A stretch of DNA of 64,000 nucleotides, taken from NCBI GenBank assembly GCA_017429685.1, contig JAFROL010000018.1, positions 1 to 64,000 of the forward strand, read 5' to 3'. The DNA is from Bacteroidales bacterium. Lineage in GTDB: Bacteria; Bacteroidota; Bacteroidia; Bacteroidales; P3. Positions 3,759 through 60,948 of this stretch are shown here, one piece after another. The notes below the pieces were generated by a model. It ran no database searches. It worked only from the letters and a program-made list of their open reading frames with translations, and was not told where the DNA came from. Both the position numbers and the translations under genes were made by a program. Numbering within the stretch: the first letter of the stretch is position 1; every line of letters starts with the position of its first letter.

Positions 3759-3763
3759 TGTTG

Positions 3764-3823: not shown

Positions 3824-3843
3824 AAAAAAGTATAGAATCGATA

Positions 3844-5352: not shown

Positions 5353-5502
5353 GCCAACATCGCCGACGGATCGTAGAACCCACGCCGAGGGGAAAGACTC
5401 GGCAAAAAACAATAACAGAGCGCTCTTTGAAATAAAAAATGTAATGGTGAGGCAATAAAAATGGAACTGGCGACGTTATAATGACAAAAAAAGGAGTTTA
5501 TT

Positions 5503-5990: not shown

Positions 5991-6056
5991 TCCATTACAA
6001 TTTTATTTCTGCATAAGGGCGTCTGTTTGAAATGATAACGGACAAACTGACATATT

Positions 6057-30500: not shown

Positions 30501-33500
30501 CGTCAATGCCTCGCTCCAGACTCCGGCCATAAACACCCCGACTTTGCTTGCCGAGACTTTGCCCGACTATGGTGGCCAGAGCAATAGCTCCTATCAGGCA
30601 ATCAACACCCTGCGCGCACTGCATCTGGTCAAGGGTACCGTCGATACGATGATTGTTGAGTGCCAGAACAGCGACAAGTCGAACGACAACACCACAAGCG
30701 GCTGGCTCTCGATATGGGTCGATGTCAACCGCGACGGACATTTCGAGTATATGCCGCTCTTGTTAGGCGAAGACAGCGCCGACTACACATATCCTTACAC
30801 CGAAATTCTCTATCAGGATACTATCGTCAGCAACATTCCGAAGAAGTTTGTCTTCTCGCTGCCCGATGATGTACGTACCGGATATATGCGTATGCGTGTT
30901 GTTGTCCATCAGGGAACAGCCAGCCCTGTGAATGTCGACAACTTTGACGAAATCAAGTTCGGCTGCGTACACGACTATCTGCTCTATGTCGAGGACCGTC
31001 CTGTCGACTACGACCTGTGCGCTTCGCGCATCATCGCACCGCGCGAGCAGCACATCGGCGGACACACGGCAACCAATGCCGATTCGTCGGTCGTTGTCTC
31101 GTTCCAGATTGCCAACAAAGGCCTTCAGGCCGTCCCTGGCGCCACGGTCAACTACCGTTTCCAGAATGCACGCTACGGCACCGAGAGCGGCACCCTTCAG
31201 GTCAACGACATTATCCAGCCTGGTCAAAGTGTCGCCGTCGCTTTGCCGGCACGTGTGTTCGACTATGGTGTGACCAATGTCAGAATCACCGTCTCGACTC
31301 CTGGCGACACAAATCTTGGCAACGACACATTGCTCTACCAGTACTACCGCCCGTACGTGAAGAAACTTGTCTTCACCGACAATTTCGAGAACCTCAGCCA
31401 GTGGTTCATCCCGCGTGGATATACGGCATTCTCGCAGAACCTGTGGCAAATCGGACGTACACAGAAACCGCATATTATGGCTTGTGTCAGCGACTCCAAC
31501 GTGATTGCTACCAACCTGTCTGGATATGTCAATGTCGCCTCCACGGGCAACGTAAGCTATGCTTATACTCCCATCTTCGACATCCATACTATCCGTCCCG
31601 ACACGATTGAGCTTTGGGTGGCTCGCGATATGGCAGAAGGCCATCTTACCCGCATCGAGTATTGTAACTATCTAGGCTTGTGGACAACCCTTGGCAGCGG
31701 CAACGATTCGCTGTGGTACAACAAGGGTGCCTGCTGGGACAGCGTCAGTGCCGGCTATGGCTACGTCAAGCATCGCTTCTCGCTCAACAGTATCGGCGCC
31801 GAATTCCAGCAGATGCTCCAATTCCGACTCGTCTATAAGGCTATGTCCGAATCGCCTTCGTGCGACGGTGTCGCTATCGACGACTTTGTCGTAGGACGTG
31901 CACGCCGTAATATCGATGTCGGTGTCGTCGCCATTACGTACCCCACCGAACCCAAGTTCGGTCAGATTGTCAATCCGCGTGTCGTCCTCAAGAACTATGG
32001 TCTTGACTCAATCCGCGACGTCACTCTCGCATATCTGCCCTATGGTGTCAACCTGCCTCGCATCGGCACTTACCATAATTCTGATGGTCTTGCCCCGGGA
32101 GCTACCGACATCTACGAGTTCCCGACGCCGTTCATCGTGCGAGACAATTTCCCCGACACCTTCCAGATTTGCGCTTTCACCACGCTCAATATGGACGTCT
32201 ATTCCGATAACGACACTGTGTGCAGCGACTTCTACCTTTCGCCTCTCGACAATGATATGGGTATCGTCTCGTTTATCGATCCTGGCGACCGTGTCGTCGC
32301 TGGCGACTCCATCACCGTCACCGCACGCATCCGCAACTACGGCCAGGCCCCTGTCCAGAGCGTTACCGCCACATATATCTACAATGGCAACTTTACCGTG
32401 ACAGAGGAAATCAACTTCAACGAAATCCTTGGACGCGACCTGCAGTCGTTCGAATATTTCAACTATTCGTTCCGTCAGAAATTCCGCGCTTCGATGGGTA
32501 ATATGAATTTGATGGCTTATATCGAGATGCCCAACGACGATTATCTCTTCAACGACACTATCAGCAAGCGCATCACCGGCCTTTCGGCTATCACCGATCT
32601 CAGGGCCCGCGAGGTCGTTGTCGATACTATGAGCCACAACTACGCCAAGATCAGTCTCGTTATCGAGAATGTCGGTGCCCGTGGCGTCGATCACTTCAGG
32701 GTAGGTTTCTGGTACTATAACGACACCAGCACGCGCACCGAATATGTCTACGAAGGTGGTATGCTGCCGTCTCTTGGAACCTACTGCTACAAATTCCCCG
32801 ATTTGCCCAAGCATCCGGAATACTACAACTATGTCACTGCCTATGTCTATTGTGACGAAGACAACGACCGCACCAACGACACTACGGACGTCATTGCAAT
32901 GCCTTACGTCGACTTGCGTCCTTTGCGCGTCCTCATCGAAGAGAACCGCACCGACTCCTGTCGTGTACGTGTCGAGGTGGCCAACGTCGGCAACACCGTC
33001 AACCACCTTGAGCAGGACATTTCCAACAAGGCCATCATCAACGGACAGACAATCCGCGCCAACGGCATCTCTAGCGAAATCCAGCCCGGTAGCTACACTA
33101 CTATCGAGTTCTCGAAGAAGATTCCGAAGAATCCGAACAGAACCTATACCGTCTGGGATTCGACAATGTTTGAGGGTGACTATAACCATTCGAACAACAC
33201 GACAACCAATGTCGAGGTCATCAACTACTTCGAGGGTGTTCCGCTTGTCGACGAAGCCGACGGTATGCTGTTGCGCCAGAACTATCCCAACCCGTTCGAC
33301 AACTCCACACGCATCGAGTTCTATCTGCCTACTTCGGGCGATGTGCGCTTCTTCGTGATGGACGAACTGGGACGCCTTGTGCACCAAAGCACCAACTATT
33401 ATGGCTACGGCGACCATACTGTCACGTTCAGTGGCGACGAGTTCCCGACCGGTGTCTACTACTACGGCATCGAGAAGGACGGTATGCGCCTGATGCGCAA

Positions 33501-47886: not shown

Positions 47887-48058
47887 GCGAAATTTTCGAA
47901 AACGACGAACTGTAAAATGAAAATAATATTTCCTCCGAAATGTTCCGAAGTGCACCAAATGGCTGGTTTTGCAGCCGTTTGCTGAACTCAGTGCAAGCCT
48001 CGGGGCAAGCCTCCGCCTTCGAGACCTCTGCCAGCCCTTTTCGCCCACCGTCCGAAGT

Positions 48059-48109
48059 CAGTTCTTATATCGTTCTTATATCCGCGATATAAGAACGATA
48101 TAAGAACTG
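48059..48109. repeat. Long perfect palindrome, copy 3 of 3
   Basis: A 23-bp perfect stem (48059-48081 with 48087-48109) has loop CCGCG and the same doubled 11-mer GTTCTTATATC. It lies downstream of the lipoprotein gene at 48284-49408. Confidence 0.92.
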
Positions 48110-48283
48110 CATAAAAACGGAATGCAAAAAGGCACCCCAGCCGGCAATGGGAACCAGCGCATATCTCCGGCAGCGCGGCCTCCGGTTTTGAAAGAATGCA
48201 AAATTACGAACTTTTTCCGATATGGCAAAAAACAATCGTTTGCTGTGGCTCGAATACGAAATAAACCAAATCGGTAGGACTAA

Positions 48284-49408
48284 TCAATAGTATTCATCGC
48301 CATTTACGCTGGTGTAGGGGATGATCGGTTTGAGTTTGCCGACTATGCGGCTATGGATGTCGGCGGTAAGGTTGTCGTACGACGTTCCCCGGTCGTCGGG
48401 CAGTGCAGCCGCAAGTTTCTGCCGTGCGGCCAGCCAGCTTGAAAAGCATTTTCTGATAGCAGTCACGCATTCCGTAATAGTGCTGTCGGACGGGTAGTTC
48501 TCGTAGCGGTCATCTTTGTTTTGTGCGTTATAATCCATTGGCTGCGAATGCTTTTTGATCCATTGTTCCCATTGGGGTGTCGTTACGGTTTTCCCTTGCT
48601 GAGCGTATTTGCTTCCTTTAAGGATTATGTCCTTTTCGATATCGAGTTCGGCCCGCCTGTTTTCGGACAGGCTTCGGTAATAGCCCTCGATTTCCAGAGG
48701 TTTCATACTGTACCATTCCTGCGTGAAATACACGTCGCGCCACAGGGTGAAACGCGCCTCGTTCAGGTCGTGCCACGCTTTGTATTCCTCTTTTGCCAAG
48801 GCTTTTATGTCGTTTGGCGCTTTTTCGAGCCATTCCCGATATGCGTCGATAGTCCGATAATAGTCGATAGAAGACATTACATAGCACTCCAGGTTCATAT
48901 CTGCCTGTTTTTGTGCCGAGAATTTGTCGAATAGGCGAAGTATGTCGTAAATCGTCGTGTCGCGACGGGCGCAGGGCACTTCGCTGCAGAACGAGTCGAT
49001 GATGCTGCCCACAGCCTGTGCCCACTGCAGTTTGTCCATAGCGTCGCCGTTAATGTCCACCAAATGGTGCATCCGCATAAAGCGATTGGCAAGGCGCAAG
49101 GCACAGGAATCGCGGTGCGTCATCTCCAGTCCATCGCCGTAATCCCGCCATTCTTCAAACCAAGAGTCAAGTGTGTGTACCTCAGTTAGATTGAGTAAAT
49201 CCGCTGCCGAGATAGGACTTATGGTTATCGCGTTTTCGATGTACGCGATGCTGTCCTCGCCGGTAAGACCTTCCGGTACCTGCACCGTGTCGCGTGGATC
49301 GAAATCACTGGAACTGTTTTTGCAGGATAGAACTGCAATACAGCAGATTGTGATTAACGACAGATTGAAACAAAAGTGTTTCCGGCGTGTGGGTCTGGTT
49401 GTTGTCAT
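48284..49408 (-). CDS. Lipoprotein of unknown function
   Basis: A 374-residue protein with a lipoprotein signal ending in IAVLSC at about residue 29. The mature part is predicted mostly helical, rich in Trp and Tyr (LDSWFEEWRDYG, EAYKAWHDLNEARFTLWRD), with four further cysteines. I do not recognise the family. It is monocistronic and flanked downstream by palindrome copy 3. Confidence 0.7.
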   Translation of the reverse strand: MTTTRPTRRKHFCFNLSLITICCIAVLSCKNSSSDFDPRDTVQVPEGLTGEDSIAYIENAITISPISAADLLNLTEVHTLDSWFEEWRDYGDGLEMTHRDSCALRLANRFMRMHHLVDINGDAMDKLQWAQAVGSIIDSFCSEVPCARRDTTIYDILRLFDKFSAQKQADMNLECYVMSSIDYYRTIDAYREWLEKAPNDIKALAKEEYKAWHDLNEARFTLWRDVYFTQEWYSMKPLEIEGYYRSLSENRRAELDIEKDIILKGSKYAQQGKTVTTPQWEQWIKKHSQPMDYNAQNKDDRYENYPSDSTITECVTAIRKCFSSWLAARQKLAAALPDDRGTSYDNLTADIHSRIVGKLKPIIPYTSVNGDEYY

Positions 49409-49548
49409 TTTCTTCTGAATAATAAATTCCTGTTTCCAGTGTGTTGCTTAAGCATTAGCCTGCATTTTGTTTGAGCTGGCTTCTTGCACATAATTTAAAA
49501 GGCTATCGTTATAACGGGAAAAGTTAAATTATATTTTATGCCATATTA

Positions 49549-49591
49549 ATACGCCCCCCTTCAAGAGTTGAAAATATGAAGGGGGGCGTAT
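49549..49591 (-). terminator. Intrinsic terminator-like hairpin after the 49618-50403 gene
   Basis: A 14-bp perfect stem (49549-49562 with 49578-49591) containing six consecutive G:C pairs, with a 15-nt loop. It lies 27 nt past the stop codon on the minus strand and is followed there by A/T-rich sequence. Confidence 0.75.
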
Positions 49592-49617
49592 GCTGAGGAT
49601 TATTGTGGAGTCAGTTG

Positions 49618-50403
49618 CTATTCGGTCGCTGTAATAGAAAAACTGGATTCGAAAGACGATATTGTGCCGCTGTGGTGCAGGTCGAAGCGGAATGAATGGG
49701 TTCCTATAGACAGGTCCGTATTGTCAAATGTTGTATACTGAATTTCATTTTCTATCCGTTCTTGAAGTTGGCCGTCCAAAAATATCTCCCAATATTCAAA
49801 GTCGTTTGCATTGTAATCAAGACGAACATTTGTCTTAATGCCTTCGCAATCATTGCCCTTGACGGAAATATCAATGTGCGTGGTGGCGTTGTCGACGACC
49901 TCCTCGGTAAAATCGGTTTCTTTTGTTGGTGTGCAGGGTTCAGCATTAAGATCCAGGACTTCGAATCTAAGGATGTTGCTGGTTGTTACGATGTTTCCCA
50001 TATAATGCGAGTAGCCTGTGACCTTATATATATGTGTTCCGATAGCCAGTCCGGTGATGTCGTATTCCTTTTCCCACGGAGTAGAATAGACTCTTTCTAT
50101 TTTTTGCTCGTCAAGCATTACATCAATGGAGTCATAATTACTCCCGTTTTGTATTGATATTTCTGAAGTTATTCCTTCACAATCATCGCCACTTAAATCA
50201 ACGCTGAATGATGGTCCATTACCTGTAATAATATTTAAACTGCTTTTCACCCCCTTTGTAGGTACGCAAGGATTGTCGGGGTCAGTCTCGCAAGGACACG
50301 GATTTTGATTGTCGCCACACTCGCATTTTTTTTCACAAGAGGATACTAAAGATAAAGATCCTAATACAAAGAGCACCCAAGCATAAAATGTTATTTTTTT
50401 CAT
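49618..50403 (-). CDS. Lipoprotein with two Ig-like repeats
   Basis: A 261-residue protein. The lipobox VSSC at about residue 23 is followed by a cysteine-rich linker (CEKKCECGDNQNPC). Two similar beta domains follow, each with a GDDCEG or GNDCEG motif and a late GTHxYxV or GTHSFRF strand. Surface exposure is plausible because the mature N-terminus has several acidic residues in the region after the lipidated Cys. It is AT-rich like the cluster upstream, but a terminator and a 160-nt gap separate them. Confidence 0.72.
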   Translation of the reverse strand: MKKITFYAWVLFVLGSLSLVSSCEKKCECGDNQNPCPCETDPDNPCVPTKGVKSSLNIITGNGPSFSVDLSGDDCEGITSEISIQNGSNYDSIDVMLDEQKIERVYSTPWEKEYDITGLAIGTHIYKVTGYSHYMGNIVTTSNILRFEVLDLNAEPCTPTKETDFTEEVVDNATTHIDISVKGNDCEGIKTNVRLDYNANDFEYWEIFLDGQLQERIENEIQYTTFDNTDLSIGTHSFRFDLHHSGTISSFESSFSITATE

Positions 50404-50565
50404 ATCATTAGGCCCTAATACGTGTCGGGCGCAACGGTTGATGTTATATTATTAAAAAACTTTAGTTTGGTAATGCTATATTTCTATATGCTACTATTGG
50501 AGCAATAATTTCTTCTTGCATCTTGTTGTACTTCTTCTGGAAATGAAATACAATTCGTAATTTCT

Positions 50566-50982
50566 TCATAACGTTGTTTGATTATTATGGTATAGGTTGA
50601 GCAATACTTTATGCAGTTCGTTGGTATCTCGTACAAAATGGACTTTAGGAGCGAACGCTCCTAAACTGTCTAAAGAGCTTTTTATGAATTTATCGGGATA
50701 TAGTTGAACCATTTGATTACTATCCATTCCCCAGTCAATATCTTTAATGCTCATTTTGTAGTCGATGACGGATTTAAAGGCTGATACTGTTGTCGCATTA
50801 TCTACATAGACAGAAAAAGAGTCGAAGTCTATTTGGATGATTGTAATATCGCGCCGTCGGCTTTGAACGCGAATACTTTGGCGCGAGATATTACTACTGT
50901 CAATACCATAATGTACTTTAAGGTACGAATCATACATCTTCAAGCGAGTACGGAAATCTAGTTCTTCGTAGGAATATGGCAT
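50566..50982 (-). CDS. Small cytosolic protein of unknown function, end of the GTPase cluster
   Basis: A 138-residue protein without signal peptide or membrane segment. It is predicted alpha/beta and contains QSRRRDITIIQIDFDSFSVY. I recognise no family. It is the last gene of the minus-strand AT-rich run, about 50 nt after the DUF805 gene, so membership of the cluster is plausible but not proven. Confidence 0.6.
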   Translation of the reverse strand: MPYSYEELDFRTRLKMYDSYLKVHYGIDSSNISRQSIRVQSRRRDITIIQIDFDSFSVYVDNATTVSAFKSVIDYKMSIKDIDWGMDSNQMVQLYPDKFIKSSLDSLGAFAPKVHFVRDTNELHKVLLNLYHNNQTTL

Positions 50983-51032
50983 ATATTATTATAAAGAGCC
51001 TTATTTTTTATGCGTACAGTATCTTCAACTGT

Positions 51033-51521
51033 TTATTGTTTAATCTCTTTATTTGTCTTTTTGTAATTAGGCGATTCCTTTTCTCTGTTCGGTAAAAGTC
51101 CATAGTCATTATCTTCGGGTGAGCCATTAGCCAATAGAAGATAAATGTTATAAAATGGAACAAGCAAAAACCAAGCACTATGATTACAATCGTGTACTCG
51201 CTTGGCAGCTTGTACCAATATAAATAATAATAATATTCCTGGAATGATATAATAGTCGGCATTCCGTGCTAAGTTATGTCGATTTTCTATTTGGGCAGCT
51301 CCTTCTTGTATTTTACCACCACCTCGTTCAACCCATCTATTATAATTAGGTGTTTCCAGATAGATATACGAAAGATGTACAATAGACCAAAAAATAACGC
51401 ATAGGAATATTCTAAAAAAGAAACTTTTACGCGTGATTCTACCTTGTACCCAAAAGAGACTTGACTCTACATGGTTGGATTTATCGTAGGGTATTTCTCC
51501 CATACCAATTCTTTTTTTCAT
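51033..51521 (-). CDS. DUF805 membrane protein
   Basis: A 162-residue protein with about three hydrophobic segments. The DUF805 pattern is clear: an N-terminal GRITRKSFF, and KRVHDCNHSAWFLLVPFYN with the later EDNDYG. The family is a small inner-membrane protein of unknown function. Its start lies 3 nt after the stop of the subtilisin-like gene. Confidence 0.85.
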   Translation of the reverse strand: MKKRIGMGEIPYDKSNHVESSLFWVQGRITRKSFFFRIFLCVIFWSIVHLSYIYLETPNYNRWVERGGGKIQEGAAQIENRHNLARNADYYIIPGILLLFILVQAAKRVHDCNHSAWFLLVPFYNIYLLLANGSPEDNDYGLLPNREKESPNYKKTNKEIKQ

Positions 51522-51524
51522 TCT

Positions 51525-53036
51525 TTACCAAGTTGATAGTTGAACCTCAAGATTCTTAACACTAATAATTTCCATATTGCCAATTTTATACGCATAGAAA
51601 CCTTCGCTTTCGCCAGCAGCAAGTGCGTAATACATTGGACGAATATCATACTCTGATTCGATTGCTTTCAGCCGAATATTCAAGTTGCCATCCGTTTTAT
51701 TGTACAGATAAATTGCCTTAACAGCTCCAGATAAGTAATCGTAAGTATAAGTGTTATGAACTTCATATTTTACAATCTTTTCCTCATTATCGTCAGACAA
51801 ATTCCATTCCCCAGAATAATTAGACGTTAAATCAAGTCTATATGTATAACTTTTATTACCTAAAAGTCTGCTTGCAATTATTTTTGCTTCACGTTCGAAC
51901 ATTTCATAAGTCATTGGCTTCTTTGGGTCTTTGGGAGTAGCGTTCCGAATAGCCTGCAATATTTGCTGGGCATTTAAGTTCTCGTATTTACTATGTATCC
52001 TATCAATAAAACCCATAAGTTTGGGAGATGCGAAAGACGTACCTGACCACGGTTCTTTGGTGATGTCAACTGTAGTCATAAGAGAATGTTTGTCCGTTGG
52101 ATAATTAGAGTATAATACATCGCTTTTGGTATCGTATGCACCAACAAGAATGAGATTATCTTTCAGAGTGTTTAATGTTTTATTATCCAGTAATGCAAAG
52201 ACTTCTTGCATACTATGCATACGATAGTTTCCAGAACTTCTTGTTACAATAAAGTTTGAAATACCTTTTCTCTTCATTTTGTTGAAGCATACGGCCAATT
52301 GTTGGAGTTCATTAGCATATAGTTTTACATAGAGTTTTTGATTGTTCGTATCAATATCATCGTATTTATCATATTCGGTTTTCTTACCTGGCAATGCTGT
52401 CCCAAACGACATATTGATTAATATTAAATCTTCATTTGCAGTATTTTTTGCCGCTTTCAGCAGATTTGACATTATTACATTGTTGCTGATTATGTGATAA
52501 CGCCTTGCAGAGTCGCTATTTGTCAAGAATACCATATCCACACTATGAATATTATCAGATACGGCGTATTTTGAAAAAGTTTTACGAACACCATTGCCGT
52601 GCGTTGTAAGCATTGACTCTTCTAAATTAAGGAAATCGTCATATATATAAATTTCGGATGCGAACTGAGAAAGGGTGTTGAAGAATGTATACTCGACATC
52701 GTCTCGACCGTTCAAAAAAGACAGAAATTCACTTTCTTTACCATCACGTACACTGACAAGATAATAGTTAAATGCAGGAATTTGCTCAACAATCTTGCCT
52801 CCACCCGATTTGATTATCTTTTTAGCCGTATGTTGCGAAACCGAATCGGAGAATAAAACAATGCACTGGTTAGCAACTGTAGTTATTTCGTAAGTCTTAC
52901 CGTTCTCCGAATAAGATACTGTTTTTATTTGTGGATATTTCCCTTTATATGTAATATCTTTAGACTCATTATTCCCGCACGAAAACAGAAAGATTATAGA
53001 GAACAGAACTAAAAATGGAAATTTTTTACGAAACAT
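51525..53036 (-). CDS. Subtilisin-like (S8) serine protease lipoprotein, divergent
   Basis: A 503-residue protein with lipobox FLFSC (Cys20). An I9-like propeptide (about 58-120) is followed by a divergent S8 domain: catalytic His in THGNGV (His146), oxyanion Asn in SSGN (Asn270) and catalytic Ser in SGTSFASP (Ser334). The Asp motif is not canonical; IYIYDDF (about 130-136) is the best candidate. A C-terminal beta domain of about 110 residues follows. It is likely periplasmic or surface anchored. Within the GTPase cluster it is the only recognisable effector-like enzyme. Confidence 0.8.
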   Translation of the reverse strand: MFRKKFPFLVLFSIIFLFSCGNNESKDITYKGKYPQIKTVSYSENGKTYEITTVANQCIVLFSDSVSQHTAKKIIKSGGGKIVEQIPAFNYYLVSVRDGKESEFLSFLNGRDDVEYTFFNTLSQFASEIYIYDDFLNLEESMLTTHGNGVRKTFSKYAVSDNIHSVDMVFLTNSDSARRYHIISNNVIMSNLLKAAKNTANEDLILINMSFGTALPGKKTEYDKYDDIDTNNQKLYVKLYANELQQLAVCFNKMKRKGISNFIVTRSSGNYRMHSMQEVFALLDNKTLNTLKDNLILVGAYDTKSDVLYSNYPTDKHSLMTTVDITKEPWSGTSFASPKLMGFIDRIHSKYENLNAQQILQAIRNATPKDPKKPMTYEMFEREAKIIASRLLGNKSYTYRLDLTSNYSGEWNLSDDNEEKIVKYEVHNTYTYDYLSGAVKAIYLYNKTDGNLNIRLKAIESEYDIRPMYYALAAGESEGFYAYKIGNMEIISVKNLEVQLSTW

Positions 53037-53041
53037 ATCGG

Positions 53042-53731
53042 CTAATTTGTTTGAATAAGGTTCTGACTTTTTAATAACTCAAAAACATCTGTGACCGCTT
53101 TGTTTTTAGCTTTAAGTGCATCTATATCACAATCACAGTTGTTTACCACTGTATCTTTTGTGACCAGATAATCAATTCTGCGAGTTTGTTTTCGTCTTAA
53201 ATGTGTTATTTTTTTTGTGTAGGTCTCAACATAATTAGAATACTGGAGAATGTGCAATGTTACATCGTCTTCACTATATCCGCTAGCTCTGTTATGCCAC
53301 CAAGCGGAGTGGTCAATTCTAAAAGTATGTGTATTATTAGGATAAATGGTTACATAATTGGTTGACTTTGCCATATCTTGCCAAACTCCTTTTGTTTCAT
53401 TGTAATCCTTGCCCTCAATCCTTATTGCGAAGCGGTTGGAATAGGTTTCATTGGTGTTTCTGATTGTAATATAATGAGTACACGTAGAACCTGTTTCTTT
53501 CCCTTCGGAATTGGTGTAATATTTCTTTTTTGTGTAATATTTCTCGATCTTATAAGACACAGTGGTATCTATCATTTCATTTACCGTCACTACAGAATCT
53601 TTTTCTACCCAATAGTCTTCATATCTTGTCTGCCAGTCAGCAACCTGAATTGTAATATCTTTGCAGTCTGGTGCACAAGAAGATGCAACTAACCCCAGAA
53701 TTACAAGTAGAATTGTAGGTATTGTCTTCAT
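53042..53731 (-). CDS. Lipoprotein of unknown function in the GTPase cluster
   Basis: A 229-residue protein with lipobox ASSC (Cys19). The mature part is beta-rich and strongly charged, with IEKYYTKKKYY, a CTHYITIRNTNETYSNRFAI stretch and CDCDIDALKAKN near the end. No family recognised. It lies 5 nt from the protease gene. Confidence 0.68.
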   Translation of the reverse strand: MKTIPTILLVILGLVASSCAPDCKDITIQVADWQTRYEDYWVEKDSVVTVNEMIDTTVSYKIEKYYTKKKYYTNSEGKETGSTCTHYITIRNTNETYSNRFAIRIEGKDYNETKGVWQDMAKSTNYVTIYPNNTHTFRIDHSAWWHNRASGYSEDDVTLHILQYSNYVETYTKKITHLRRKQTRRIDYLVTKDTVVNNCDCDIDALKAKNKAVTDVFELLKSQNLIQTN

Positions 53732-53737
53732 AGCACT

Positions 53738-54289
53738 CTAATTCACGTTGTTTATAATGTCATTATATTGTTCTATTAAGGCTCTATAATATGCCTTTTG
53801 AGGTTGAGACAGCCAAGAAAACACATTGTCGCTGACATCTGAATTTATTGAGTCTATGATGTGTAATGCCTTTTCTGAACTTTCTTTTAACTTTTTCAGG
53901 AACTCTGCAGTTGAGCCTTCGACTTTCGGGTCAAGGGTACACTTCAAATCGTGAATCAGTCTAATCAGATTATAGAAATCACGGCTTCGGGCGCATAATG
54001 ACGCTGGGTCAACAGATTGAAATTTACTCCCGAATATTGACGTGTCTTGAATGTTTAAGAATTCGTCAAGAGCAAGGCTACGCATTCTGTCACGCATAAT
54101 TTTCAGATCGTTATTAAGCTTACCGTTAGTGAATTCCAATTCCTCTACAGATTGATGAAGAATGTTGTATTCCGCCTTTAAGACAGTGTCATATAGACAC
54201 GTGTCCATCTTCATTCTAATTTCGCAATGCTGAGCATTGGTCGAAAAGAAGAAAAACATCAATAATGTAAAAATGATGAATCTTTTCAT
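53738..54289 (-). CDS. Secreted helical protein in the GTPase cluster
   Basis: A 183-residue protein with a Sec signal peptide (MKRFIIFTLLMFFFFSTNAQ). The mature part is predicted helical with coiled-coil potential (VEELEFTNGKLNNDLKIMRD). It contains several cysteines that could form disulfides. No family recognised. It is tightly packed between the two neighbouring genes. Confidence 0.68.
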   Translation of the reverse strand: MKRFIIFTLLMFFFFSTNAQHCEIRMKMDTCLYDTVLKAEYNILHQSVEELEFTNGKLNNDLKIMRDRMRSLALDEFLNIQDTSIFGSKFQSVDPASLCARSRDFYNLIRLIHDLKCTLDPKVEGSTAEFLKKLKESSEKALHIIDSINSDVSDNVFSWLSQPQKAYYRALIEQYNDIINNVN

Positions 54290-54299
54290 AACGTCTATT

Positions 54300-55856
54300 T
54301 TATTTTGAAATATTTATTTGTGATGATGCAAGCGTGGTTCCATTGCGAGAAACACTAAAGCTATATGTTCCGCTTGTTTTTAAAGATATAGTTATTGGGT
54401 TAATGTTTGTATTTTCGTTTACGGACTTTATTTCTGGAGGGAAATGCCATTGCACTTTCTTAATGATTTTTTTGTTTTTATCCACAGCACTAATCTCTAC
54501 ATTACCACCTATAGGAAACCAATAATCTGAGGTGTTTTGTCCGTTGTTGTATAATATCGTTATGCTTTGTTCATCTTTCATTTTGTCTATTTTGTGATCC
54601 GTTGTGGGCTTTCTGGCAATTATATACTGTTGTCTACCAACTTCAGTGCCTTTATATTCAGCCACCACCGTTACAACGGTTTCGTTATCAGGTTTGTGCA
54701 GGACTTTTAGTTTGTATTTGTTTTCATTTTCTATTTTTTCCAATTTCACGATGTCAGTATGGTCTATACTGTAATTAATATCGCTACTTATGATGCTACT
54801 ATTTGGGGATTTATTGAGTGTGGGGATAATGGCACAAGACTCATTTATGGGTTGGTCCCAGGGCTTGAATGTTACAGAAACTGAGTCTTCATTAGTTGCC
54901 ATCCTGCCGGATGCAGTACTTCCACCAGAGCCTCCTATTGTTTCTGTCTTGGATGGAGTTTGTTCGTTCTCTTTTTCATTCTTAGGCTTAAGGAATAACA
55001 CAAGCAGGAGAATAATTGCCGAAACAACAATGCCCAACAAAATCATTGTTTTTCTATTTAATCCTATACCTTTTCTCTCTTCTTCTTTATCATCATAAAT
55101 TATATCATTGCTTGAACTTTCGTTTGAGTCCTGTTCTACAGTTCCTTTATTTACCGTTCCCCATTTGAGTGGCTTTTGGGGTTTCACGATAGAACTAGTT
55201 GTGTTTTCATTATGGAAATCTACAATCTTATCGTCTTTTATCTTATATATTTTTTTGTTTGCCAATTTAAGTACCACATTATTTATAGGGTCTTTAAATA
55301 TGTCACTATTGCTAGAAATATATACGTCTTCATATTCTTTTATTTGTTGTTCTACATCGAAAATTTGATCAAATTCTGGAGCGTACAACAAGCATAGTTT
55401 TTTGTTTGGGGTCTGAGGCCTTCCTGACCTGATTGGCTTTTTTATAATCGAAATGTCTTCATCTGGCCATTTGGTACCTTTTAAAATATCCAGTACTGAT
55501 GGAGTTTTGAATCTCCAATCATCTTCTTTTGTAAGTAGTAATTCGGCAAATTCCGTACGATATTGATATAACACATCATTTACTAATTGTTTAGCATCAA
55601 ATTCGTGGTTGGTTTTTAATGCAATACCAAAGACGATGCCACCACGTTCAGACTCAAATCCATTCACTCTGCTATAGTATTCCATTCCAGAATAACCACT
55701 CCTTGAAAAGTAATGCAATACTGGTTCATCGTAGTTTTGGGGCTTCAATAATGGTTCTTGAAAAGAATTGTCATCGGCTACAGTTTTATCCACATCAAAA
55801 CCATATTCATGTGATTCAAATGCCCTGGGTTTCCCATATACAACTATATTTATCAT
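54300..55856 (-). CDS. Single-pass membrane protein with cytosolic N-domain and periplasmic Ig-like domains
   Basis: A 518-residue protein. The first 250 residues form an unknown cytosolic domain beginning MINIVVYGKPRAF, followed by an acidic linker, one transmembrane helix (about 275-295) and about 220 periplasmic residues with two Ig-like beta units. The N-domain may resemble the GTPase-associated domains of predicted conflict systems, but I cannot confirm this. It follows the GTPase gene and is a plausible sensor or signal relay. Confidence 0.7.
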   Translation of the reverse strand: MINIVVYGKPRAFESHEYGFDVDKTVADDNSFQEPLLKPQNYDEPVLHYFSRSGYSGMEYYSRVNGFESERGGIVFGIALKTNHEFDAKQLVNDVLYQYRTEFAELLLTKEDDWRFKTPSVLDILKGTKWPDEDISIIKKPIRSGRPQTPNKKLCLLYAPEFDQIFDVEQQIKEYEDVYISSNSDIFKDPINNVVLKLANKKIYKIKDDKIVDFHNENTTSSIVKPQKPLKWGTVNKGTVEQDSNESSSNDIIYDDKEEERKGIGLNRKTMILLGIVVSAIILLLVLFLKPKNEKENEQTPSKTETIGGSGGSTASGRMATNEDSVSVTFKPWDQPINESCAIIPTLNKSPNSSIISSDINYSIDHTDIVKLEKIENENKYKLKVLHKPDNETVVTVVAEYKGTEVGRQQYIIARKPTTDHKIDKMKDEQSITILYNNGQNTSDYWFPIGGNVEISAVDKNKKIIKKVQWHFPPEIKSVNENTNINPITISLKTSGTYSFSVSRNGTTLASSQINISK

Positions 55857-55948
55857 TCTATCTACTCTGGCTTTTGTGTTGTCAATTTATGTTATCATTC
55901 AATTGCCCTACTGTGTTTATCGGCAAAATGCATTGAAAGTGGGGTAAG

Positions 55949-55976
55949 GAGCGACAGATGAAACCATCTATCGCTC
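55949..55976. promoter_or_regulatory. Hairpin between the GTPase gene and the next gene
   Basis: GAGCGA-C-AGATG pairs with CATCT-A-TCGCTC around loop AAAC. It lies in the 135-nt gap downstream of the GTPase stop and may attenuate transcription into the rest of the cluster. It lacks a clear U-run. Confidence 0.5.
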
Positions 55977-55991
55977 ACCTGCCCAATATGT

Positions 55992-56948
55992 TTAAGAGAG
56001 AATACGTTTCCACCACGGCAAAACGTGTTTGCCCGTGCACCAACGGTACAATGTATACCAAAAGTTTCTCGGTGATCGTAGTACCATTTTTATGATTGTA
56101 TTACCAACGACATCGCCAACCGAGTATGGAATCAAGCCGTATGACCTCGAAAAACCAGAATATTCGCTATATAGAGTATTGCGGTGCAGTTGGATGTATT
56201 TTTCCGGACTAACTCGCTTTGGCAGTTTATCCCATTTGGTTATTATCAACAAAAATTTCGTCATATTATAAAGACGAGGTGAAGTTGTTCTCAAGGATGT
56301 GATGAAAGAATGCATTTCGGTGTCCTCAGCCTTGTCAAATTCAGATGCATACCCCACTTCTAGCATTTGTTCGTCTACTGGTGAAAGAATTGCAAAAATA
56401 GCCCTTTGTGCAATACAGGCCGCCAATATCTGTTTAATTTTTTCAGCAGAGGACTGTTCGTCATCCGTTCGCTTCCCCGTCAGTCGCTCAATATCTTCAC
56501 CCGAAAAGTCAAGTAGTGTTATTTTTATTCTTTTCTTACGATAACGAGATTCCATATCAAGGTCAGTTATCGTCATTTCGTCAGGACGTGTAGATGGCAA
56601 TACATTGCTTCCATCCAATGCTGTTAGTATCGTATCTACACCAGATTCTTTCCTGTCACCTGCTACAGCAAAATTGCAGGAATTGTCTTCTTTGTTGTCT
56701 CGTCTAAATGCGTATGCAATTAAAGACGCAATAAACATTGATTTTCCTGACTGAGGGAGGCCGATAGGAATAATTAATCGACGACCATCTGCTATACGTT
56801 TTGCAATATCCTTTAGAATCTCTTCATTACTGAATTCCTGTAGCAAGTGATTACCAACTATATTGTATCTGCCATTAGATGTAGGCTTATAAGCCTTTTG
56901 TGATGTACTCGTTGTAGAACTTGTTATTTCTGGAGCTTGGATTGACAT
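55992..56948 (-). CDS. P-loop GTPase (TRAFAC-like) of unknown system
   Basis: A 318-residue protein starting MSIQAPEIT at 56948; an upstream extension overlapping the neighbouring gene is rejected. The Walker A GLPQSGKS (63-70), a DxxG-type Walker B LLDFSGED (about 145-152) and TKWD (237-240, resembling NKxD for guanine) are present, followed by IPYSVGD. It ends in LPWWKRILS, a motif shared with the preceding membrane protein. It is probably a regulatory GTPase controlling the cluster. A membrane role is inferred from context. Confidence 0.8.
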   Translation of the reverse strand: MSIQAPEITSSTTSTSQKAYKPTSNGRYNIVGNHLLQEFSNEEILKDIAKRIADGRRLIIPIGLPQSGKSMFIASLIAYAFRRDNKEDNSCNFAVAGDRKESGVDTILTALDGSNVLPSTRPDEMTITDLDMESRYRKKRIKITLLDFSGEDIERLTGKRTDDEQSSAEKIKQILAACIAQRAIFAILSPVDEQMLEVGYASEFDKAEDTEMHSFITSLRTTSPRLYNMTKFLLIITKWDKLPKRVSPEKYIQLHRNTLYSEYSGFSRSYGLIPYSVGDVVGNTIIKMVLRSPRNFWYTLYRWCTGKHVLPWWKRILS

Positions 56949-56973
56949 AATGATTGTATTTATATGTTTATAA

Positions 56974-58083
56974 TTAATTAATTCCGAAAATTCGTTTCCA
57001 CCAAGGGCGATCAAAAACTCCTGGGTCTGAACCAAATTCGTCTTCCTCATCTTCTCTGATGTAGAAGTAGAACAGAAATGGTCCTAAAAGGTCGAAGAAG
57101 AAGCATACTATTATAACTCCCCAAGTGTCCAATTTCCCTAATCTTTCTCTTACGGAAATCAATGTGTGCTCAAATGTGCCTAATTTCTGTGTCTTGGGAA
57201 ATGCAATAGTTTCTTTTCCTGATACAAGAGGTATAAATGAAACCGTACTACTTACTGAATTGACATTATTGGCGACCTTGTCTAGTTTTGAAGTCAGTTC
57301 CTTCATCACTTTTATTTGAGGATTATTGTTCACATCTTCACGTGCAATGCTGACTTTGGAGTTTTCTTCAAGAATTAAATCTATTTTAGGACCGTACTCA
57401 TCAACAATGCTGTCCAATTCGTATTTGGCGTTGACCATTTTTTCGGCAGCTCTGTCGTCTCCATTGAGTTTAACAATAAAACTTTTTATGCCTTCGTCTG
57501 TTTTCTTTTTCCATTCTGCGCGAAGTCTTTCGTTCTCTTCTTTGTTATGAGTAACTGTTCTCTCTCCGGTATATTTTGTTCCTGCTAATTCGTTAAAGTT
57601 CCTCAGCTGCAGGTTTGCTTCTGGGCCAAATCCATCGCGATCCTTTATTTCGGTTAAAAGATTTGTTTGAAACTCTCTCAATCTTTGGAGTTTTGCTAAG
57701 GCCAGAGAATCGCCTTTAATGGCAATAGCATCAAGTTCGTTTGGCATTCTGTCCAATCTGTCCTTTAAAACTTTGGCTTCTTCGTTCACCAGCGTCCGCC
57801 CCAAATAATGAGGGTAAAGATAGGAGAGATTAAATACGAAAAATAAAATTTCACCTGTAAGATAGAGGTAAATCATTTTTCTACGACCTTTGACAGAAGC
57901 GAGATACCCTCCAAAAACCATTACGAGAGGAATAATGGCCAAGAACCAGCTGCCCGCATTGCTTCCAAATGCATCGAACATTCTTAAACCCATCACTGTG
58001 TTGTAATACCCAAAGACAAAACAACCTATAGCAGCCAACCAAAAAATGACTACTAAAAACTTTGATTTTTTGTTATCTTCCAT
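56974..58083 (-). CDS. Multi-pass membrane protein with coiled-coil insert, C-terminal PWWKRI
   Basis: A 369-residue protein with hydrophobic helices at about 8-25, 43-60 and 70-90 and a final one at about 320-345. Between them is about 220 residues of coiled-coil-prone charged sequence. The topology somewhat resembles DUF4407 membrane proteins; unconfirmed. The C-terminus after the last helix ends RPWWKRIFGIN. The gene starts 3 nt after the small upstream gene and is followed after 25 nt by the GTPase gene. Confidence 0.78.
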   Translation of the reverse strand: MEDNKKSKFLVVIFWLAAIGCFVFGYYNTVMGLRMFDAFGSNAGSWFLAIIPLVMVFGGYLASVKGRRKMIYLYLTGEILFFVFNLSYLYPHYLGRTLVNEEAKVLKDRLDRMPNELDAIAIKGDSLALAKLQRLREFQTNLLTEIKDRDGFGPEANLQLRNFNELAGTKYTGERTVTHNKEENERLRAEWKKKTDEGIKSFIVKLNGDDRAAEKMVNAKYELDSIVDEYGPKIDLILEENSKVSIAREDVNNNPQIKVMKELTSKLDKVANNVNSVSSTVSFIPLVSGKETIAFPKTQKLGTFEHTLISVRERLGKLDTWGVIIVCFFFDLLGPFLFYFYIREDEEDEFGSDPGVFDRPWWKRIFGIN

Positions 58084-58086
58084 ATT

Positions 58087-58416
58087 TTATATTTTGTTTC
58101 CTGTTCTTACGGCTTCGCAGGTATTGCCTTTATATTGTTTTAATTTTGATTTCTCTTTTTGCCATTCTGAGTTCTCGTTGGTGGCAATTATACATAATAA
58201 AAAAGCATAGAACTCGTGTCGCTTTAGTTCTATACTTTCTAGGCATCGCCAAACGCCTTTCCCAAATAAAACTAACGTGAACCTTATCCTATGCTTCAAT
58301 ATGTAATAGTTATAAACCAATACATATGCAAAAGAAAAAGGCATCAGTATAATAAGTCCTTGGGTTAAATTTTGGCGAAATTTAGAAAGTGGACTGACTA
58401 CAAATGCTTTTTGCAT
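58087..58416 (-). CDS. Small membrane protein opening the GTPase cluster
   Basis: A 109-residue protein starting MQKAFVVSPL at 58416. An earlier ATG at 58458 overlaps the -7 box, so the later start is preferred. One or two hydrophobic segments (LIILMPFSFAYVLVYNYYI and the FYAFLLCIIA region) are seen, with a basic C-terminus. It ends 3 nt before the multi-pass membrane gene, so is probably translationally coupled to it. No family recognised. Confidence 0.58.
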   Translation of the reverse strand: MQKAFVVSPLSKFRQNLTQGLIILMPFSFAYVLVYNYYILKHRIRFTLVLFGKGVWRCLESIELKRHEFYAFLLCIIATNENSEWQKEKSKLKQYKGNTCEAVRTGNKI

Positions 58417-58445
58417 CGCACGACAACTCGCGTCGATTTCGGATG

Positions 58446-58453
58446 CAAAAATA
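58446..58453 (-). promoter_or_regulatory. -7 box TATTTTTG for the GTPase cluster
   Basis: TATTTTTG on the minus strand lies about 30 nt before the start at 58416. The -33 region has no obvious TTTG, so regulation by an activator is possible. Confidence 0.45.
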
Positions 58454-58625
58454 CGCATTTTTTTCGATACTGATGTCTTTTTGGGATAAGATTCTTTTAA
58501 ATAACTGATAATAAATGTAATATTGTTTTGTTTTTGTTGTTTTTCGTAATGCTTTATTATTGTATTGTTTTCTTTGTATTGTTATTTTGAATATTTTTTT
58601 CGTGCTTTTATTTGTATTGGAACGC

Positions 58626-59141
58626 TCAGATTGCTATTCCGTTATCTGTGATTAGCTTTATCAGCTGGTCGGTGTTGGCGCCGAAGGCGGGGAGGGTGAG
58701 TTGTGCCTGATTGTAGTAGGGTAGGCGCTGCTGGAGTTGTTCGGTTATGTATTGCCGCACCTGTTCGGGCGTTTTGTTTTTCAGCAGGGGGCGTGTGCGT
58801 CGTGCGTGTGCGATGCGCTCCATTATGTCGTCGACGCTCATTTGCAGGTGAATGGCGGTGCCGTGGTCGAGGATGAAGCGGATATTGCTATCGTTGCAGG
58901 GGGTGCCTCCGCCGGTGGATATGATGACGTTGTCCATCTCGGCTGTGCTTTGCAGAATCTGCCTCTCGATGATGCGGAAGGCCTGTTCGCCGTAGTGGCT
59001 GAAGAATGTCGAGATGGTGGTGCGGTATTTCAGTTCGATAGCCTTGTCGGTGTCGAAAAACTGCACGCCCAATCGTCTGGCCGTTTCGCGTCCCAGGGTC
59101 GTCTTGCCACTATAGCTGTAGCCTATGAGGTAGATGCGCAT
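58626..59141 (-). CDS. aroK: Shikimate kinase
   Basis: A 171-residue P-loop kinase phosphorylating shikimate at O3 in the aromatic amino-acid pathway. Walker A GYSYSGKTT, the DTD motif (FFDTDKAIE), STGGGTP and the lid RTRPLL are present. The length is normal. It follows the M23 peptidase gene in a sufS-recN-M23-aroK run, with an octamer repeat array just upstream of its start. Confidence 0.96.
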   Translation of the reverse strand: MRIYLIGYSYSGKTTLGRETARRLGVQFFDTDKAIELKYRTTISTFFSHYGEQAFRIIERQILQSTAEMDNVIISTGGGTPCNDSNIRFILDHGTAIHLQMSVDDIMERIAHARRTRPLLKNKTPEQVRQYITEQLQQRLPYYNQAQLTLPAFGANTDQLIKLITDNGIAI

Positions 59142-59189
59142 CTTTGTTAATTCGAGAATTCGTTAATGTGTGAATTTGTTAATGTGTTA
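59142..59189. repeat. Octamer tandem repeat ATTCGTTA-type, six units
   Basis: CTTTGTTA, ATTCGAGA, ATTCGTTA, ATGTGTGA, ATTTGTTA, ATGTGTTA lie head to tail between aroK and the M23 peptidase gene, the same family as at 38023 and 45688. Confidence 0.82.
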
Positions 59190-59193
59190 TGTG

Positions 59194-60948
59194 TCAGAAG
59201 TATAATTTCCAGATTTGTTCTACGGTGTTGCCCACGGCGTCGGTGAGGCGGAAGCTTACGCTGTTATGCCCTTTGCGCAGATGCCGCGCGTCGACGCTGA
59301 GGGTGGCGGTCTTGCCGTCGTGTTCGGCCAGCTGCCATTCGCCGTTGATGAAACAGCTATAGCTGACCACGCCGGTCAGGTTGTCGCTGATTTTTACTGT
59401 TATTTTGTTTTTTCTGAATGTCTTGCCGTTGGTGAAGTTGAGCGGTTTTATGGTTGGGGCTACGGTGTCGAGGCGGATGGCGAAGCCGCCAAACGAGCGT
59501 GTGGGCGCACGCAGTCGGCCTTCTTCAATGGTGGTTGGCAATGCGCTGACATTCTTGCCGTTGATGCAGACTATCGTAAGTTTGCCGAGCTGTTCGTCGC
59601 TAATGCCTTGTGGAATGTCGAGCCATACGTCGAAGCTTTGGTGTGGCGGCAAGGGATGTTTGACGAGGTTGATGTGGTGACGGTCGGTGAGCGAAAGTGG
59701 GTCTTTGCTGCGGTGGTACGACAGTTGGTCGTTCTCGTAGACTGTGTAGGGCCGTATGTCGACAGAGAAATTTTCGCGGTTGAGCCGGAAGCGCCGGAAA
59801 TAGGTTATTGGCTCGCCGGTGGCGGCTATTGCTGGCGTATTTGCCTGGTCTGTTGTGGGTTGGCCGGGAATAGAGCGCAGGTAGAGCGTTTGCTGCGCGT
59901 AGTTGCCTTTATGGTCGATGGCACGATATCGGATTTGGTGTATCTTGTTGTCGTCGAAATGGATATAGCCATTGTTGCGATAGGCGGTGCTGAAATTATT
60001 GCGGTCGCCGCGCAGGTGGCGCGAAATGATGTAGTATTCGTGTGTGCGTTGGTAGTGAGGATAGTCGATGATGGCATTGACGGCGCGTGTTTCGTCGAAG
60101 ACAAAGGTGGGAACGGTATAGACATAGAAAAGCGTGTCGTCGATGTAGAGTTCGATGCGGTGGATGCCGTTTTTGTTGCGCGAGCCGGGCTCGTGCTGGT
60201 CGTAGGTATAGATGCCTGTGTAGAAGCGTCCGCAGACGGTAAGTGTGTCATATAGAGGTAGCTGCTTTGAAAGTAGGGTGAATGTTCCGTTCTTGCCGTC
60301 GATAGTGGCGTTGTCGCTTGCGGGGTAGATTTTGATGCCTGCTATTGTCGGTGCAATCAAGTCGGTGTATTCCAGGCCAAAAAGTAGCGGATTGATTGGC
60401 TGGTCGTTTTCGGCCAGGCGGATTTCGTAGTGCAGATGAGGTCCGGCGGAGCCTCCGGTATTGCCAGTAAGGGCCACGAGCTGGCCTTTGCTGACGCGTA
60501 TCGAGTCTTTGGGCAGTTCTATGTCGAAAGCGTACAGGTGGTTGGCATACTGGTAGTCGTGGACGAACTGTCCGATTTTGCCACAAAACTCGCTAAGGTG
60601 CATATATACTGTGCGGTATCCGTCGGGGTGGGTTATGTAGAGCACTTTGCCTCCGCCCCAAGCCGAGATGTTGATGCGCGACACGTAGCCGTCGTTGGGA
60701 GCATAGACGCATTCGCCCTCCTTGCCGTCTGTGCGTAGGTCGAGGCCGCTGTGGAAATGGTTGGGGCGTATCTCGGCAAAGCCTCCGGCCATCGATACGG
60801 GCAGGCGAAGGGGCAGCGTGGTGTAGCATTCCGGAGCGTTGATGCGCTTGCCTTGAAACGTCTGCGGCGTTTGGCATACGGAGATGGCGCTTGTGAGGAA
60901 CAACTGCAAAAACAGCAGTGCGAACTTGGTAGGGAATTGCTCTTTCAT
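59194..60948 (-). CDS. M23-family metallopeptidase (LytM)
   Basis: A 584-residue exported protein with a signal peptide. The LytM domain (about 45-185) holds the zinc ligands in HFHSGLDLRT and HLHYEIR. C-terminal beta domains follow, ending in VGNTVEQIWKLYF. It would act on peptidoglycan cross-bridges, or be a non-catalytic activator; all zinc ligands appear intact. It is cotranscribed with recN (12-nt gap). Confidence 0.9.
   Translation of the reverse strand: MKEQFPTKFALLFLQLFLTSAISVCQTPQTFQGKRINAPECYTTLPLRLPVSMAGGFAEIRPNHFHSGLDLRTDGKEGECVYAPNDGYVSRINISAWGGGKVLYITHPDGYRTVYMHLSEFCGKIGQFVHDYQYANHLYAFDIELPKDSIRVSKGQLVALTGNTGGSAGPHLHYEIRLAENDQPINPLLFGLEYTDLIAPTIAGIKIYPASDNATIDGKNGTFTLLSKQLPLYDTLTVCGRFYTGIYTYDQHEPGSRNKNGIHRIELYIDDTLFYVYTVPTFVFDETRAVNAIIDYPHYQRTHEYYIISRHLRGDRNNFSTAYRNNGYIHFDDNKIHQIRYRAIDHKGNYAQQTLYLRSIPGQPTTDQANTPAIAATGEPITYFRRFRLNRENFSVDIRPYTVYENDQLSYHRSKDPLSLTDRHHINLVKHPLPPHQSFDVWLDIPQGISDEQLGKLTIVCINGKNVSALPTTIEEGRLRAPTRSFGGFAIRLDTVAPTIKPLNFTNGKTFRKNKITVKISDNLTGVVSYSCFINGEWQLAEHDGKTATLSVDARHLRKGHNSVSFRLTDAVGNTVEQIWKLYF

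What the first reader, a model, noticed from the sequence alone, without database searches (positions are those of the whole stretch)
50566..58416. Nine-gene AT-rich cluster built around a GTPase, membrane proteins and a subtilisin-like lipoprotein
The genes run one way with mostly short gaps: small membrane protein, multi-pass membrane coiled-coil protein, P-loop GTPase, single-pass protein with cytosolic N-domain and periplasmic Ig-like domains, secreted helical protein, lipoprotein, S8-like protease lipoprotein, DUF805, small cytosolic protein. The products would span cytosol, inner membrane and periplasm or surface. Base composition is unlike the flanks. The arrangement suggests a signal passed from a cytosolic GTPase across the membrane to an extracytoplasmic protease, fitting either a conflict system or an envelope machine. 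I know of no named system with this set.
Basis: partly seen in the sequence, partly recalled or inferred. Interest (0 to 1): 0.85.

Follow-up and report, generated by a model that had tools for sequence, protein, structure and literature searches.

The report
Cross-membrane GTPase system in Bacteroidota
A horizontally acquired set of genes in a Bacteroidota genome encodes a GTP-driven switch inside the cell that is built across the inner membrane and comes with changeable partners outside it, among them proteases; it looks like an undescribed relative of the predicted DO-GTPase conflict systems, but nobody has tested what it does.

Summary
In detail: nine same-strand ORFs, GC3 0.26-0.42 against 0.60-0.75 in flanking genes. 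The GTPase passes the Pfam cut-off for DO-GTPase1, the switch of the predicted 'GTPase-centric' conflict systems (PMC7159879). The outer two ORFs are not conserved. The conserved core is g2 (3+1 TM protein, large periplasmic helical domain), g3 (GTPase), g4 (cytosolic domain, TM, periplasmic Ig) and g8 (DUF805): 8 of 8 complete loci, the ninth cut at a contig edge. A g2-g3-g4 trio recurs across the phylum, beside RHS-like genes in one genus; SrfB/SrfC operons carry a look-alike set. Outer parts vary: subtilisin lipoprotein (two intact, one truncated), retropepsin-like lipoprotein instead (one intact, one truncated), LysM on two partners, or an Ig domain shared by g4 and g8. Distribution is patchy (2 of 120 genomes of the genus, its own included), with signs of transfer.

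Best reading: a trans-envelope DO-GTPase switch, probably for conflict or envelope defence, relaying between cytosol and exchangeable extracytoplasmic partners. Function is untested; GAP1 was not detected; in three of nine loci no protease was recognised in the cluster, so 'a GTPase drives a protease' is not general. New variant of a known kind.

The parts
58446..58453 (-). TATTTTTG, a possible Bacteroidota -7 promoter element (TAnnTTTG, consensus recalled)
   Evidence: read; not tested
58087..58416 (-). g1, small one-TM ORF (123 aa if started at 58458); doubtful member
   Evidence: no BLAST match in L002-L009
56974..58083 (-). g2, 369 aa: three TM segments, ~228-residue periplasmic helical domain, fourth TM, cytosolic tail ending PWWKRIFGIN; core
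55992..56948 (-). g3, 318 aa DO-GTPase1: GLPQSGKS, DFSGED, TKWD; C-terminus PWWKRILS; core
   Evidence: Pfam PF19975 1.5e-9, 37.9 bits over cut-off 27
55949..55976 (-). 12-bp hairpin in the 135-nt g3-g4 gap
   Evidence: gap is 18-30 nt in L004-L007
54300..55856 (-). g4, 518 aa: cytosolic N-domain (~1-225), TM 271-289, periplasmic Ig-like domain (~322-419); core
53738..54289 (-). g5, 183 aa secreted helical protein
   Evidence: 5 of 9 window-like loci
53042..53731 (-). g6, 229 aa lipoprotein with conserved cysteines
   Evidence: 5 of 9 loci
51525..53036 (-). g7, 503 aa S8 protease lipoprotein with prodomain; D133 H146 N270 S334 kept
   Evidence: PF00082 5.8e-9, PF22148 2.1e-7
51033..51521 (-). 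g8, 162 aa DUF805 membrane protein; core
   Evidence: PF05656 2.4e-11
50566..50982 (-). g9, 138 aa cytosolic protein, accessory
   Evidence: no BLAST match in L002-L009
49618..50403 (-). g10, 261 aa lipoprotein in the same AT-rich tract, membership uncertain
   Evidence: PF04170 NlpE 2.2e-5; GC3 0.405

Best explanation
A horizontally acquired trans-envelope DO-GTPase switch, most likely of the conflict (defence) type. Shown from sequence: a cytosolic P-loop GTPase of the DO-GTPase1 family, encoded between a 3+1 TM protein with a large periplasmic helical domain (g2) and an adaptor with a cytosolic N-domain, one TM and a periplasmic Ig domain (g4), together with DUF805 (g8) and a changing set of secreted and lipid-anchored partners, including proteases. 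Inferred: g2 senses a disturbance of the envelope, such as phage entry; the GTPase docks on the cytosolic faces of g2 and g4, perhaps helped by the C-terminal PWWKR tails; GTP binding or hydrolysis changes g4, and the change passes through its TM to the periplasmic Ig/LysM platform. That platform holds or releases the outer partners: in this window the subtilisin lipoprotein would cut an envelope or invader protein. g4 takes the place that GAP1 holds in known DO-GTPase systems.
For: DO-GTPase1 above cut-off in the window (37.9 bits), L055 and L101, L040 and L061. Of 18 g3-type proteins all have the P-loop, 15 have [DE]xxGE, 17 have [TS][KQ]WD. Core kept in 8 of 8 complete window-like loci. Profile comparison: g2 type A+B to C 99.0% over 294 columns, g3 types 93.5-99.7%, g4 A+B to C 85.6% over 174 columns; six unrelated cross-pairs at 1.0% or less. 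All 17 g2-type proteins show the 3+1 TM pattern. g4: cytosolic residues 1-225 are 29-51% identical to four relatives, the periplasmic part 14-22%. Exchangeable parts: S8 or retropepsin-like protease; Ig domain shared by g4 and g8 of L007, 39%, E 9e-14; LysM on both g4 and g6 of L102. Patchiness: 2 of 120 genomes of the genus, own included; g3 66/61/61% identical to L004/L005/L006 but 40% to congener L007. Restriction systems 3.4 and 1.8 kb from the trio in L059 and L060, not tested for enrichment. A PADLOC 'subtilase' model matches the S8 of L040 (1.3e-18). Kaur et al. describe GAP1 fused to C-terminal TMs with cadherin domains (passages).
Against: No functional test. GAP1-N was not detected in g4; no GASH or second GTPase was recognised. 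The window's own proteins have only weak PADLOC matches: g3 to mad8 (18.2 bits), g6 to Cas8a (14.0), g7 none. GTPases of L059 (22.7 bits), L013 (17.1) and L056 (15.7, but over the DO-GTPase2 cut-off) fall below the PF19975 cut-off of 27 and L102 has no match; nine further g3 proteins were not scanned singly. L063 and L064 have GG and L102 GD where the Walker B glutamate is expected. g4 A alone to C scores 1.9% and B alone to C 0.2%. In 3 of 9 window-like loci and in all seven type-C trios no protease was recognised in the cluster. No relatives were found in phages (g2), plasmids (g2, g3, g7) or viral contigs (g2, g3, g7). L058's trio sits among genes that look like housekeeping genes (by eye). 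Transfer and variability also fit envelope or niche functions.
Confidence: 0.4

Rival explanations
1. An envelope maintenance or assembly machine: the GTPase drives a trans-envelope complex that builds, anchors or turns over surface proteins, with proteases as processing enzymes and LysM/Ig domains as cell-wall anchors.
For: LysM domains on g4 and g6 of L102; trio directly downstream of RHS-like genes in 3 of 3 loci from one genus; SrfB/SrfC operons with the same component types; DO-GTPase linked to membrane stress in Psp operons (passage of PMC11237479).
Against: 2 of 120 genomes of the genus carry it, so it is dispensable; the periplasmic part of g4 changes quickly; protease genes are truncated in two loci.
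Confidence: 0.32
2. An antagonism or surface-delivery system: the GTPase module controls exposure of large surface proteins (RHS) or secreted proteases aimed at competing cells.
For: RHS-like genes 71, 77 and 81 nt upstream of the trio in L061, L063 and L064 (RHS Pfam match tested on L061 only; YD-like motifs counted 8, 2 and 7); protease partners of different classes.
Against: No variable toxin tip was recognised in the RHS C-termini by eye; no immunity gene or secretion machinery was recognised; no RHS gene was seen beside the window's cluster.
Confidence: 0.13
3. A passive island: unrelated AT-rich genes that merely landed together.
For: Outer ORFs g1 and g9 had no match in L002-L009; composition differs from the flanks.
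Against: g2-g3-g4-g8 order is kept in 8 of 8 complete loci.
Confidence: 0.03

Closest known systems
DO-GTPase/GAP1 'GTPase-centric' conflict systems (Kaur et al. 2020, PMC7159879; abstract and passages read)
   Same: GTPase family with glutamate in the DxxGE motif, membrane-linked partners, constant core plus variable parts, a core protein with TM and an outer beta-sandwich domain, proteases among partners.
   Different: Single GTPase, no detectable GAP1, GASH or FNIII; a 3+1 TM partner and DUF805 instead. The words DUF805, LysM, RHS and SrfB had no occurrence in the paper's main text.
SrfABC operon (PF07520, PF10139)
   Same: L040 and L056 place SrfB-SrfC before S8, a 3+1 TM protein, DO-GTPase, TM adaptor, lipoprotein and coiled-coil protein (the last two of L056 judged by eye).
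   Different: No Srf match among the ten window proteins; g2 and g4 of that type are not detectably related by sequence to the window's.
T9SS motor proteins PorM/GldM
   Same: Weak profile matches of g2 around residues 96-198 to three PorM/GldM chains, E 0.18-0.76.
   Different: Not significant; arginase (0.067), pore-forming toxin components and designed proteins score as well or better in the same list; g2 has 3+1 TM and a GTPase partner.
Gabija and type IIG-like restriction genes in the same window
   Same: AT-rich Gabija pair (GC3 0.28-0.29) in the same window.
   Different: Located at 174-8588, about 42 kb away; unrelated proteins.

Membership tests
DO-GTPase1 (PF19975) | GTPase profile above Pfam gathering score | tested here: met
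   37.9 bits against 27 for the window's g3
DO-GTPase1 (PF19975) | P-loop and conserved glutamate in Walker B | tested here: met
   GLPQSGKS and DFSGED in the window; DxxGED in all five type-A proteins; [DE]xxGE in 15 of 18 g3-type proteins, not in L063, L064, L102
DO-GTPase/GAP1 conflict system | GAP1 protein with GAP1-N1 or N2 | tested here: inconclusive
   No such Pfam match in 5 g4 proteins, none by profile comparison; position and architecture agree; the N-domain fold was not searched on its own
DO-GTPase/GAP1 conflict system | GASH (N1 type) or FNIII (N2 type) partner | tested here: inconclusive
   No such Pfam match in the ten proteins scanned; g4 has an Ig-like domain
DO-GTPase/GAP1 conflict system | Protects against invaders | not testable with these tools
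   Predicted only, in the passages of PMC7159879 that I read
Peptidase S8 (PF00082) | Profile above cut-off and Asp-His-Asn-Ser residues | tested here: met
   36.1 bits against 21.8; D133 H146 N270 S334 kept in window and L006; Asp-His spacing of 13 is short
DUF805 (PF05656) | Profile above cut-off | tested here: met
   44.5 bits against 25.7
Known anti-phage systems in PADLOC | Clear match of the window's proteins to a defence model | tested here: not met
   Only mad8 at 18.2 bits (E 3.4e-4) for g3, and Cas8a at 14.0 bits for g6
SrfABC | SrfB and SrfC genes present | tested here: not met
   No such Pfam match among the ten window proteins

The most novel reading that the evidence does not exclude
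A GTPase immune switch that acts across the inner membrane: a cytosolic DO-GTPase linked to a four-TM receptor and a TM adaptor controls a periplasmic platform to which interchangeable lipid-anchored proteases (subtilisin, retropepsin-like) and cell-wall binders attach through shared domains. It would be a periplasmic counterpart of the effector-associated-domain logic described for cytosolic conflict systems, widespread in Bacteroidota, with SrfB/SrfC operons as its large form.
Probability: 0.25. Interest if true: 0.8.

Novelty: new variant of a known kind. Interest (0 to 1): 0.52.

Why it matters
DO-GTPase systems were predicted in 2020, and in the library searched here I found only two papers that use the name in this sense. 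A compact four-gene core that couples such a GTPase to two membrane proteins and to exchangeable outer partners gives a small, testable unit to find out what these GTPases do. It also suggests a setting for DUF805 proteins and a link to the SrfB/SrfC operons. If the output is a periplasmic protease, it would be an unusual way to carry a GTPase signal out of the cytosol.

Tried and rejected
GAP1 in g4: looked for with Pfam on five proteins and with profile comparisons, not found. Ties of the SrfB/SrfC-type g2 and g4 (and lipoprotein and coiled-coil protein) to the window type: not detectable by sequence beyond a signal peptide, so they rest on the GTPase, order and topology only.

Mobile carriers: no match in plasmids (g2, g3, g7), phages (g2 only tested) or viral contigs (g2, g3, g7). 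A clean empty site was not found: congener G005 keeps SufS-RecN-M23-shikK without the cluster, but its next genes differ. No flanking repeat that would mark an element was recognised. No Rfam match at 48000-60000.

Dropped hits: G035 and G094 look like unrelated proteins; G785 looks like signal-recognition GTPase Ffh (recalled from its sequence); G624 is a GAP1-N1 system; G881 is a contig-edge fragment.

PWWKR: the coding pattern occurs only twice in the own genome, at the C-termini of g2 and g3, but the backward-read control also occurs twice, so the count alone is not remarkable; the position is. In L007 the g2 tail reads PWWKKR.
Full report
WHAT IS THERE. Nine ORFs run on the - strand from 58458 (or 58416) to 50566. 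GC3 is 0.26-0.42 for g1-g9 and 0.405 for the next ORF g10, against 0.69-0.75 for six flanking genes and 0.60 for g11. Gaps are 3, 25, 135, 10, 6, 5, 3 and 50 nt. The GTPase gene starts at 56948.

FAMILIES. Pfam gives DO-GTPase1 for g3 (1.5e-9, 37.9 bits, cut-off 27), Peptidase_S8 plus a fervidolysin-type prodomain for g7, and DUF805 for g8; g1, g2, g4, g5, g6 and g9 have no match above cut-off. PADLOC and NCBIfam add only weak or below-cut-off matches.

THE CONSERVED UNIT. One scan of genome contigs with g3 found four loci, and genome searches added others. Nine loci are of the window type: the window, L004, L005, L006, L007 (same sequence as congener G029), L013, L055, L101 and L102. g3, g4 and g8 are present in 9 of 9; g2 in 8 of 9, L005 starting at its contig edge just upstream of g3. 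g5 was found in 5 of 9 (window, L004-L007) and g6 in 5 of 9 (window, L004, L005, L006, L102). An intact S8 gene is in 2 of 9 (window, L006), and L004 keeps only a 68-residue ORF matching its N-terminus. In L055 the slot after g8 holds a lipoprotein with a retropepsin-like domain (PF13975, 4.2e-14); in L101, a relative 95% identical in g2 and g3, this ORF stops after 126 residues, 91 nt before the contig end. L005 has a C10 protease as third ORF after g8, which may not belong. In L007, L013 and L102 no protease was recognised inside the cluster (partly Pfam, partly by eye); genes further out were not screened systematically. In 213 genomes of the order, the g7 profile matched only the window's own genome at E 1e-8 or better.

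WIDER FAMILY. The phylum search with g3 matched 12 of 395 genomes. Ten, including the window's own, have a 3+1 TM gene and an adaptor gene beside the GTPase; the other two are a GAP1-N1 system (G624) and what looks like an Ffh protein (G785). Seven loci (L057-L061, L063, L064) are type-C trios with no further conserved partner recognised. In L061, L063 and L064, all from one genus, an RHS-like gene lies 71, 77 and 81 nt upstream; the RHS Pfam match was tested on L061 only, YD-like motifs number 8, 2 and 7. L040 and L056 are long operons: SrfB (3.1e-192) and SrfC (1.7e-123) in L040 with BLAST-related genes in L056, then S8, 3+1 TM protein, DO-GTPase, TM adaptor, lipoprotein and coiled-coil protein (the last two of L056 by weak BLAST or by eye). 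In L056 the GTPase passes the cut-off of DO-GTPase2, not DO-GTPase1.

HOMOLOGY TESTS. Profile comparison gives g2 A to C 97.8% over 297 columns, and A+B to C 99.0% over 294; all ten g3 pairings, the GAP1-system GTPases included, score 93.5-99.7%; g4 A to B 82.8%. g4 A to C alone gives 1.9% and B to C 0.2%, but A+B to C, with two more B sequences and the N-domain only, 85.6% over 174 columns. g2 and g4 of the SrfB type, and GAP1, show no relation (3.4% or less), and six cross-controls give 1.0% or less. All 17 g2-type proteins, SrfB type included, have three TM segments near the N-terminus and one starting at residue 259-328, at the 1.4 threshold of a simple hydropathy scan (L059 splits the last into two); 17 of 18 g4-type proteins have a TM after a 250-440 residue N-domain, L057 being the exception. 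Among 18 g3-type proteins all have GxxxxGK[ST], 15 have [DE]xxGE (not L063, L064, L102) and 17 have [TS][KQ]WD (L056 has TKTD).

ANATOMY. Positive charges at the N-terminus of g2 and between TM2 and TM3 put its ~228-residue domain in the periplasm and its tail in the cytosol (inference by the positive-inside rule; the tail itself has 4 basic and 8 acidic residues). g3 ends in PWWKR plus a few residues in 5 of 5 type-A loci and g2 in 3 of 4, the fourth (L007) having PWWKKR; the coding pattern is found nowhere else in the own genome, though the control pattern is as frequent. g4 identity to the window is 32-51% (residues 1-120) and 29-40% (121-225), 2-18% in the cytosolic linker and 14-22% in the periplasmic part; the periplasmic domain of g2 is better kept (40-65%, TM part 67-80%). 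g7 keeps the catalytic Asp, His, Asn and Ser, with a short Asp-His spacing of 13. In L007 the g4 Ig domain recurs at the end of g8 (39% over 97 residues, E 9e-14; score 164 against at most 51 in 500 shuffles); in L102 LysM domains end both g4 and g6. These look like shared outer docking or anchoring domains (inference).

TRANSFER. 2 of 120 genomes of the genus, the own included, carry g2. The window's g3 is 66, 61 and 61% identical to L004, L005 and L006 but 40% to the congener L007. In the g2 tree L102 joins L055/L101, from a family outside its class, (97/94) rather than L013 of its own family; L013 is flagged there as a long branch, so this conflict is weaker than its support. Of 26 genus genomes searched, the nearest by shikimate kinase, G005 (67%), has the flank without the cluster.

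MECHANISM. Shown: the parts and their likely places. Inferred: the 4-TM protein senses, the GTPase switches, g4 relays through the membrane, and outer partners act. The conflict reading rests on the family name, patchiness, exchangeable outer parts, truncated protease genes and, in two of seven type-C loci, neighbouring restriction systems (HsdM/HsdS in L059, GmrSD in L060), which were picked by eye and not tested for enrichment. The envelope-machine reading rests on LysM, RHS and Srf links and on a Psp-operon link reported for a DO-GTPase. I weigh them 0.40 to 0.32.

LITERATURE. Of PMC7159879 I read the abstract and passages found by search terms; of PMC11237479 two passages; SrfABC papers only in a search listing. 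'DO-GTPase' or 'double-GTPase' was found in three papers since 2020; the third, on an alignment method, I did not open. This library lacks most subscription papers and all preprints, so absence from print is not shown.

Noticed in passing
window 174-2761 (+): Gabija defence pair: GajA (4.1e-110) and GajB (2.7e-54), GC3 0.28-0.29.
   Followed up: partly
window 3844-5352 and 6057-8588 (+): Two ORFs matching the methylase half (2.9e-39) and an N-terminal part (5.9e-34) of one type IIG restriction enzyme model, in reversed order relative to that model; the first matches a type II methylase model better (4.4e-47).
   Followed up: partly
window 55949-55976: 12-bp hairpin in a 135-nt g3-g4 gap that is 18-30 nt in L004-L007; folding z-score -2.42, 3 of 200 shuffles as good. 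Possibly an inserted or regulatory element.
   Followed up: partly
window 21574-33519 (+): 3981-residue ORF with a signal-like N-terminus, no PADLOC match.
   Followed up: no
L040 705-18808; L056: Long Bacteroidota operon of SrfB, SrfC, S8, 3+1 TM protein, DO-GTPase, TM adaptor, lipoprotein, coiled coil; in L040 also a vWA protein.
   Followed up: partly
L061 2765-12062, L063 169-7134, L064 1355-10545: RHS-like repeat gene directly upstream of the 4TM-GTPase-adaptor trio in three genomes of one genus.
   Followed up: partly
L102 123-1346 (-): TM protein with a DMSGST motif resembling a vWA metal site (motif recalled), right after g8; no Pfam vWA match.
   Followed up: no
L042 63-11515: Operon with tubulin-like protein, a protein that joins what looks like a ParA-type ATPase to a DO-GTPase-like domain below cut-off (23 bits), and a TM trypsin.
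   Followed up: no
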